DNA of 64,000 nucleotides from Tragulus kanchil (lineage: Eukaryota; Chordata; Mammalia; Artiodactyla; Tragulidae): assembly GCA_022376925.1 (NCBI GenBank), contig JAIOJX010000032.1, positions 116,661,979 through 116,725,978 on the forward strand. Reading direction: 5' to 3'. This document shows positions 1 through 58,532 of this stretch, in pieces. Positions within the stretch are counted from its first letter, which is position 1; every line of letters begins with the position of its first letter. The position numbers were made by a program, and so were the translations under genes. The notes under the pieces are model-generated. The model saw only the letters and a program-made list of their open reading frames with translations, had not been told where the DNA came from and searched no databases.

Positions 1-98
1 GAAGGCACACGAGTGAGCGGCCCTACCTGTGTACCATATGCAACAGATGCTTTGCCCGATCCGATTACTTAAAGCAGCATCAGAGAGTTCATAAATGA
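1..98 (+). CDS. KLF18: KLF18-like zinc finger protein, copy A, 3' end of last exon (partial)
   Basis: The window opens inside the last coding exon of an upstream gene copy. The frame encodes the end of the finger 2/3 linker (HTSERPY) and a complete third C2H2 finger with spacing C-X2-C-X12-H-X3-H, then Lys and TGA at 96-98. The product would be a nuclear DNA-binding factor of the Kruppel-like family. Against copy B (58357-58532) the 98 bases differ at eight sites; four change the protein (Leu/Met, Tyr/His, Arg/Lys, Lys/Arg). The Tyr/His change lies at recognition-helix position +3, within RSDYLKQH here versus RSDHLKQH in copy B. Both zinc-binding His residues are kept and no stop or frameshift is seen. 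The rest of the gene lies upstream of the window, so whether it is intact cannot be judged. Confidence 0.85.
   Translation, partial: RHTSERPYLCTICNRCFARSDYLKQHQRVHK

Positions 99-58532: not shown

What the first reader, a model, noticed from the sequence alone, without database searches (positions are those of the whole stretch)
1..58532. KLF18-like gene is tandemly duplicated, with paralogous flanks
The last exon and 3' UTR at 1-600 match 58357-59030 on the same strand, and the downstream flanks (to about 4780 and to 64000) also match in order. Seen directly: about 8 percent difference in the 98 coding bases. This is too high for an allele or a misassembly of one locus, unlike the 1.1 kb repeats. 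After removing likely assembly duplicates the repeat unit is about 41 kb. KLF17/KLF18 are a rapidly evolving pair, so a lineage-specific extra copy would be notable.
Basis: partly seen in the sequence, partly recalled or inferred. Interest (0 to 1): 0.75.

Follow-up and report, generated by a model that had tools for sequence, protein, structure and literature searches.

The report
Ancient KLF18 gene pair spawning retrogenes
The window holds the end of one and the whole of a second copy of an embryonic transcription-factor gene (KLF18); the pair looks like an old ruminant duplication, not a new one, and its messenger RNA has been copied back into the genome at least nine times, leaving two or three copies that could still make a full-length protein.

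Summary
Observation confirmed. Window 1-746 and 58435-59169 are 81% alike and further flanks match in order. Both ends are KLF18 genes; KLF17 lies 11.7-14.3 kb to the right, tail to tail. The 1.1 kb near-identical tandem pairs are assembly artefacts (75 in 264 kb).

Interpretation corrected. The pair is probably not lineage-specific. Left copy A is the counterpart of a second KLF18 in yak and buffalo (5 of 5 rows of this type lack the same 53-residue block); right copy B matches yak1 and goat. A later gene-conversion tract (919 columns) covers the last exon, so fingers group by species and most of the rest by paralogue. One finger-2 helix position still separates the types: D in B, S in A.

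New. At least 9 intronless KLF18 copies lie elsewhere in the genome: 8 from B, 1 from A; poly(A) runs at 8, target-site duplications (3 exact, 3 imperfect) at 6. They act as fossil transcripts: B starts near a TATA box at 27025 and ends at 59037. Two have full open frames (477, 480 aa), a third after collapsing an artefact; amino-acid changes look neutral. This resembles mouse Zfp352.

The parts
1..98 (+). KLF18 copy A (type 2), end of last coding exon (finger 2 end, finger 3, stop TGA at 96-98); the rest of copy A lies left of the window
   Evidence: Translation RHTSERPYLCTICNRCFARSDYLKQHQRVHK*; the exon goes on about 78 bases left of the window
99..603 (+). copy A 3' UTR to poly(A) site
   Evidence: A-derived retrocopy L028 ends here, followed by an A run
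604..7937 (+). copy A downstream part of the duplicated block (with later insertions; contains artefact pairs 2200-4506 and 6487-8702)
   Evidence: homology to 59038-64000 and on to about 3 kb beyond the window end
26996..27002 (+). TATATAA box 29 bases upstream of the inferred cap site of copy B
   Evidence: sequence
27025..27159 (+). KLF18 copy B noncoding exon E0; cap site at 27025 (assembly-duplicate copy 25950-26084)
   Evidence: matches of retrocopies L021, L022, L025 begin at 27025, L024 at 27026, L023 at 26961, L026 at 27073; donor GTAAGT follows
42490..42570 (+). optional noncoding exon U1 of copy B (boundaries approximate, splice sites not clear)
   Evidence: present in one retrocopy only, L021
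43792..43943 (+). optional noncoding exon U2 of copy B
   Evidence: in retrocopies L021, L022, L023; acceptor TTACAG, donor GTAACC
44053..44338 (+). exon E1 of copy B; start codon in ATGGATCCACTGATG at its end (assembly-duplicate copy 42963-43248)
   Evidence: acceptor CCCCCACAG, donor GTGAGT; matches of five retrocopies begin at 44053 and of a sixth at 44054
49096..49308 (+). exon E2 of copy B, N-terminal module 1 (assembly duplicate 50258-50470)
   Evidence: tblastn to yak P0001 8-78; joined to E3 in retrocopies
51833..52036 (+). exon E3 of copy B, module 2 (assembly duplicate 52906-53109); no counterpart found in copy A
   Evidence: tblastn to P0001 114-183
55616..55828 (+). exon E4 of copy B, module 3
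   Evidence: tblastn to P0001 183-255
55959..56571 (+). exon E5 of copy B, KLF18 repeat region and finger 1 (assembly duplicate from 57081)
   Evidence: tblastn 70% to P0001 253-474
58357..58532 (+). exon E6 of copy B, fingers 2 and 3 and stop
58533..59037 (+). copy B 3' UTR to poly(A) site (ATTAAA shortly before it)
   Evidence: retrocopies L022, L023, L024, L026, L027 end here followed by A runs
57943..58875 (+). copy B side of the gene-conversion tract (copy A side: from about 490 bases left of the window to window 434)
   Evidence: segment found on the A/B alignment, coordinates mapped
42005..64000 (+). copy B part of the duplicated block (goes on to about 3 kb right of the window)

Best explanation
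The window spans the 3' end of KLF18 copy A (type 2) and all of KLF18 copy B (type 1), head to tail, followed to the right by KLF17 tail to tail. A segmental duplication of KLF18 happened in an ancestor shared with bovids, after the split from whales. The two genes then diverged in their N-terminal halves (A: one clear module, no exon 3 found, most of exon 4 and 53 residues of repeats gone; B: three modules), while gene conversion later overwrote the last exon, part of intron 5 and the first part of the 3' UTR. Both genes have been transcribed and spliced in germ line or early embryo, because both mRNAs have been copied back into the genome by retrotransposition. Most likely they work like other KLF18 proteins, as zinc-finger regulators of genes with GC/GT boxes at embryonic genome activation (inferred from published KLF18 and Zfp352 work, not shown here). 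Shown: structure, homology, the divergence dip, the retrocopies. Inferred: conversion as its cause, function, timing, the animal (probably a chevrotain).
For: Gene models of A and B; KLF17 placement. A with yak2 and buffalo 90/90, B with yak1 and goat 92/95 in the exon-5 tree of 12 rows, whales outside; same groups at 77/77 and 78/87 with 17 rows. 5 of 5 type-2 rows lack the 53-residue block; 0 of 6 type-1 and 0 of 6 outgroup rows lack it whole (B lacks 14 residues of it). Diagnostic sites before the fingers 11 by paralogue to 4 by species, in the fingers 1 to 7, Fisher p 0.009, for A, B, yak1, buffalo; the two other quartets tried gave 9 to 2 and 1 to 7, and 11 to 3 and 1 to 5. A/B divergence dips to 95 of 919 columns against 243 of 1162 outside, 0 of 5000 permutations as extreme; noncoding columns 72 of 665 in the tract against 120 of 554 beside it. 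Retrocopies with common 5' and 3' ends.
Against: A plus B as sister genes is not rejected at 0.05 on exon 5 (p-AU 0.059 with 12 rows, 0.21 with 17). On exon 6 and on all fingers A and B do group (79/85, 84/84), which I read as conversion. Exon 4 of B is nearer to type 2 (51 and 53 of 71 residues, yak2 and buffalo) than to type 1 (46 and 46, yak1 and goat), with whales at 47 and 50; this may be kept ancestral state or another exchange and is not resolved. Where yak P0007 lies is unknown (its contig is 14 kb), so that it is a tandem neighbour in bovids is not shown. No ruminant DNA or reads could be compared, so dates and read depth are untested. No expression data for this animal.
Confidence: 0.82

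Rival explanations
1. Lineage-specific tandem duplication: A and B split after this animal left the other ruminants.
For: The finger-only tree joins A and B 84/84 and rejects A with yak2 and buffalo, p-AU 0.026; A+B on exon 5 is not rejected at 0.05; exon 4 of B does not side with type 1.
Against: Shared 53-residue loss in 5 of 5 type-2 rows including A; site pattern 11 to 4 outside the fingers; finger-2 S shared by A, yak2 and buffalo; noncoding divergence outside the tract K 0.21-0.35.
Confidence: 0.12
2. Assembly artefact or two haplotypes of one gene.
For: The assembly is full of false 1.1 kb tandem copies.
Against: A and B differ by 11-28% per feature with different exon content, against 0-4% in the artefact pairs of the window; yak has both proteins; retrocopy L028 matches exons and 3' UTR of A at 93-96% while the eight others are nearer to B, so both mRNAs existed.
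Confidence: 0.01
3. The last exon and its surroundings are alike because of purifying selection rather than gene conversion.
For: dN/dS of the finger exons is low, 0.21-0.27.
Against: The tract includes intron 5 and 3' UTR: noncoding 72 of 665 inside against 120 of 554 beside it, p 3.5e-7 (the tract limits were chosen on the same data). Residues shared by A and B differ from those shared by yak1 and yak2.
Confidence: 0.12

Closest known systems
KLF18 (Pei and Grishin 2013, PMC3820594), placental gene beside KLF17
   Same: Synteny tail to tail with KLF17, intron between finger 1 and fingers 2-3, SP/KLF finger pattern, fast evolution
   Different: Two diverged copies; three N-terminal modules in B; [quoted passage not shown]
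Zfp352 / Zfp352l / Zfp353 of mouse and rat (KLF18 retrogenes)
   Same: Coding regions without introns, derived from spliced KLF18 mRNA, three fingers kept in the open copies
   Different: Independent, in a ruminant; at least 9 separate copies, most of them broken; no expression known. The paper found close Zfp352 homologues in mouse and rat only
Yak P0007 and buffalo P0006 (database names: hypothetical protein; KLF18 isoform X1)
   Same: Same gene type as copy A
   Different: They keep exon 4; A has lost most of it

Membership tests
SP/KLF family | CX4CX12HX3HX7CX4CX12HX3HX7CX2CX12HX3H with three fingers | tested here: met
   A, B, L021, L022, L024: 5 of 5 tested; pattern taken from PMC3820594. 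Of 7 database KLF18 proteins tested, 6 met it and goat P0003 did not
KLF18 | Neighbour of KLF17, tail to tail | tested here: met
   KLF17 on the minus strand 11.7-14.3 kb right of the window
KLF18 | Intron between finger 1 and fingers 2-3 | tested here: met
   Intron 5 in A and B
KLF18 | Repeated [YC]x[sE][QH] motif in the N-terminal region | tested here: inconclusive
   5 in B, 1 in A; no background count was made
KLF17 | Best match to KLF17 rather than KLF18 proteins | tested here: not met
   A and B align over their length to KLF18 proteins and to rodent KLF17 in the fingers (and weakly in frames read across the last intron) only; the KLF17 gene is elsewhere
Zfp352-like KLF18 retrogenes | No introns in the coding region, insertion by retrotransposition | tested here: met
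   Poly(A) runs at 8 of 9, target-site duplications at 6 of 7 examined, common 5' end at 4 of 6; L025 keeps one intron
Zfp352-like KLF18 retrogenes | Open reading frame kept by selection | tested here: inconclusive
   2 of 9 full length in the raw assembly, a third only after collapsing an artefact; private N/S 21/8, 25/8, 20/5, near neutral
Zfp352-like KLF18 retrogenes | Expressed in early embryo | not testable with these tools
   no reads available
Lineage-specific tandem expansion | Copies closer to each other than to any orthologue | tested here: not met
   Met on the fingers (84/84), not in exon 5, where the opposite grouping is best but A+B is not rejected at 0.05

The most novel reading that the evidence does not exclude
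KLF18 in this ruminant has independently repeated what it did in mice: its mRNA, made in germ line or early embryo, seeded a family of retrogenes, of which two or three (L021, L022, perhaps L024) are working embryonic transcription factors with altered finger-2 helices, alongside two ancient KLF18 paralogues whose fingers are kept alike by gene conversion while one helix position stays different.
Probability: 0.22. Interest if true: 0.75.

Novelty: new member of a known kind. Interest (0 to 1): 0.58.

Why it matters
In 2013 it was open whether KLF18 is a live gene (PMC3820594); a 2026 review cites it as relevant downstream of DUX4 in human embryos (PMC13294343, passages seen). Retrocopies that share a cap site, splice joins and a poly(A) site are sequence evidence that both KLF18 copies were transcribed in cells that pass genes on. 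An old ruminant pair with fingers that look homogenised by conversion and one diverged helix position gives a natural test of how two embryonic regulators share targets, and the retrocopies are a second case, outside mice and rats, of KLF18 giving rise to retrocopies with open frames. It also warns that gene models in this assembly contain false duplicated exons.

Tried and rejected
Lineage-specific duplication: not favoured, on the shared loss and the sites outside the fingers. KLF17 as first copy: rejected by finding KLF17 itself. Three N-terminal repeats at 49.1, 51.8 and 55.6 kb as three broken KLF18 genes: my first reading, dropped when yak P0001 showed them to be three exons of one gene. 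A frameshift between 55831 and 55953: dropped, it is a short intron. The DUX-like motif TAAYCTAATCA near exon E1 of both copies: homologous sites, so one event, and in B inside the transcribed part; not used. Selection on retrocopies: coding against 3' UTR divergence looked suggestive (L021 0.074 v 0.120, L022 0.075 v 0.119, L024 0.065 v 0.098, against 0.049 v 0.033 and 0.042 v 0.026 for broken L023 and L025), but private N and S counts are near neutral and intact and broken copies do not differ (Fisher p 0.24). What remains is survival of the frame: simulated chance of staying intact 0.003, 0.0003, 0.008 with the UTR rate and an assumed 0.10 indels per substitution; 0.03, 0.02, 0.05 with each copy's own coding rate; 0.34, 0.30, 0.39 counting stops alone at that rate. 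The three were picked because they are open. Genome-wide searches with exon E0 or the 3' UTR did not complete, so the number of retrocopies is a lower bound.

Full report
Observation. A self-comparison of the window finds 1-746 against 58435-59169 on the same strand (81.3%) and 4306-4725 against 63578-63997 (84.3%); 20 shuffles reach at most 31 bits against 711. The 98 coding bases differ at 8 sites. The 1.1 kb tandem pairs are separate: 17 adjacent pairs in the window and 75 in 264 kb, with periods of 1014-1204 bases and median identity 99.6%. Their differences are 107 mismatches and 184 indels in 80,892 columns, an error-like make-up.

What the ends are. The genome holding the window (3.17 Gb, 32 contigs, window at C2:116661979-116725978) gave 100 kb on each side. 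Copy A is a gene with exon 1 about 8.2-8.8 kb left of the window, exon 2, exon 5 and exon 6; no exon 3 was found and exon 4 is mostly lost. Copy B lies wholly in the window. KLF17 lies 11.7-14.3 kb right of the window on the minus strand, tail to tail, the order reported for placental mammals in PMC3820594 (seen: parts 1-3 of 6 of the text, section 15, and passages). The model proteins are 477 aa (B) and 293 aa (A), and both keep the SP/KLF finger pattern.

Age of the pair. Database relatives include two distinct KLF18 proteins in yak: P0001 (530 aa, three modules) and P0007 (369 aa, two modules). Buffalo P0006 resembles P0007, goat P0003 resembles P0001. In exon 5, A joins yak2 and buffalo (90/90) and B joins yak1 and goat (92/95), with three whales outside (12 rows). 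With five fragments of unnamed metagenome origin added (17 rows) the support is 77/77 and 78/87, and A+B together is not rejected (p-AU 0.21; 0.059 with 12 rows). The shared loss of a 53-residue block in 5 of 5 type-2 rows and, as a whole, in none of 6 type-1 and 6 outgroup rows (B has its own 14-residue gap) is the stronger character. Against it, exon 4 of B is nearer to type 2 (51 and 53 of 71) than to type 1 (46 and 46), whales 47 and 50. On balance the duplication is older than the split of this animal from bovids. B and yak1 share 74% before the fingers where yak1 and goat share 89%, and A and B each lie outside the other ruminant rows of their type; from this I infer, without proof, a chevrotain (Tragulidae).

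Gene conversion. Using A, B, yak1 and buffalo, diagnostic sites before the fingers are 11 by paralogue and 4 by species; in the fingers 1 and 7 (Fisher p 0.009). The other two quartets tried gave 9 to 2 and 1 to 7 (yak1, yak2) and 11 to 3 and 1 to 5 (goat, buffalo); the Fisher test was run on the first alone. The finger-only tree of 9 rows joins A and B (84/84) and rejects A with type 2 (p-AU 0.026). Along the DNA, one segment of 919 columns holds 95 mismatches against 243 in 1162 columns outside, 0 of 5000 permutations being as extreme; noncoding columns hold 72 of 665 inside against 120 of 554 beside it. The segment runs from intron 5 through exon 6 into the 3' UTR; finger 1 lies outside it. 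In yak and buffalo the fingers of the two types are also 93-97% alike against 71-74% before them, and a one-residue deletion in finger 1 occurs in three type-1 rows and one type-2 row, which suggests exchange there too. One finger site still follows the paralogue: finger-2 helix RSDEL in B, yak1 and goat, RSSEL in A, yak2 and buffalo. PMC3820594 describes acidic residues that orient the DNA-contacting arginines; that this D is one of them is my reading, from recall of KLF structures.

Retrocopies. A search of the whole genome with P0001 (81 of 2058 candidates scored, so a lower bound) found nine loci where exons 2-6 or parts of them run on without introns, fetched as L021-L029. Eight match B better and one, L028, matches A and shows A spliced exon 1 - exon 2 - exon 5 - exon 6. 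L025 keeps intron 4; L027 is 5'-truncated; L029 has an extra module and no 3' UTR. Of six whose upstream part matched exon E0, four start within one base of window 27025, L023 starts 64 bases before and L026 48 bases after it; TATATAA ends 23 bases before 27025. Of the eight with a 3' UTR, five end at window 59037 followed by an A run; L021 also ends with the same last bases after a small gap, L028 ends at the same place of A, and L025 ends early with an A run. Target-site duplications: exact 14-17 bp at L024, L025 and L028, imperfect at L021, L022 and L023, doubtful at L026; L027 and L029 were not examined. The tree is star-like with weak inner support, L023 and L025 being nearest to B. The six compared share no flank upstream of the mRNA, so they look like separate insertions.

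Are any retrocopies working? L021 (480 aa) and L022 (477 aa) are open in the raw assembly; L024 (480 aa) is open only after collapsing an artefact pair: the first of its two assembly copies has a one-base difference in exon 5, and the second is open but begins inside exon 3. Private changes are N/S 21/8, 25/8 and 20/5, near the neutral ratio, and intact and broken copies do not differ (Fisher p 0.24). Private indel events in the coding part are 0, 0 and 0 in these three against 2, 4, 3, 5 and 6 in L023, L025, L026, L027 and L029, where the retained intron of L025 and the truncations of L027 and L029 add to the count. This favours selection on the frame, but the simulations depend on the rate assumed and the three were picked for being open. 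I call them candidates.

Literature. Searches for KLF18 with KLF17, bovine embryo, cattle, DUX4, ruminant, tandem and retro, and Zfp352 with retrotransposition and KLF (20 of 23 and 15 of 16 papers listed, all in the others) listed no paper whose title or abstract start describes a second ruminant KLF18 or KLF18 retrogenes outside mouse and rat. Most subscription journals are not in this library, and the 2026 KLF18 paper cited in PMC13294343 is not held. PMC12524274 (passage) names KLF18 once, for human. PMC13294343 (passages) reports KLF18 downstream of DUX4 in human and Zfp352 in mouse 2-cell embryos; PMC9691860 (passage) lists KLF18 at the human 4-cell stage.

Judgement. The retrocopies are the more surprising result.

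Noticed in passing
window, e.g. 2200-4506, 6487-8702, 55778-58011; whole 264 kb: False tandem duplicates of about 1.1 kb (75 pairs in 264 kb, about a third of the sequence; also in eight of the nine retrocopy loci); they double exons of copy B and would mislead gene annotation and size estimates.
   Followed up: yes
window 20845-21776 +: Protein kinase D-like sequence (PRKD ubiquitin-like domain and C1 domains) in two overlapping frames, probably a processed pseudogene.
   Followed up: partly
window 32234-32572 -: Ubiquitin-conjugating enzyme fragment, probably a processed pseudogene.
   Followed up: partly
P0003, P0019, P0127 (type 1) and P0216 (type 2): The same one-residue deletion between the cysteines of finger 1 in both KLF18 types of some ruminants, which breaks the SP/KLF spacing (P0003 fails the pattern).
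   Followed up: partly
window 49096-55828 and proteins P0001-P0013: An acidic LEDIEEFL-like core of the N-terminal module occurs three times in yak1, goat and two whales (and as three exons in B), twice in yak2 and buffalo, once in camel, horse, dog, cheetah and Molossus, and was not found in pangolin (12 proteins): probably an exon triplication between the camel split and the whale-ruminant ancestor. Perhaps an activation motif.
   Followed up: partly
window 44109, and 91420 of the 264 kb string (left of the window): DUX4-like motif TAAYCTAATCA (recalled) at homologous places in exon E1 of B and upstream of A's coding start; KLF18 is downstream of DUX4 in human according to PMC13294343.
   Followed up: partly
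window 26801-26974 and 33423-33598: About 175 bases just upstream of the copy B cap site have a 77% alike second copy on the same strand 6.6 kb away; possibly a repeat-derived promoter.
   Followed up: no
window 26951-26959: GGGTGGGGC, a GT/CACCC-box-like site, about 70 bases upstream of the cap site of copy B: possible regulation by a KLF.
   Followed up: no
L029: A retrocopy with an additional tandem copy of module 2 inside its coding part.
   Followed up: no
window 54119-54191 -: tRNA match by Rfam (33.9 bits) in a stretch of repeated SINE-like copies, probably a tRNA-derived SINE.
   Followed up: no
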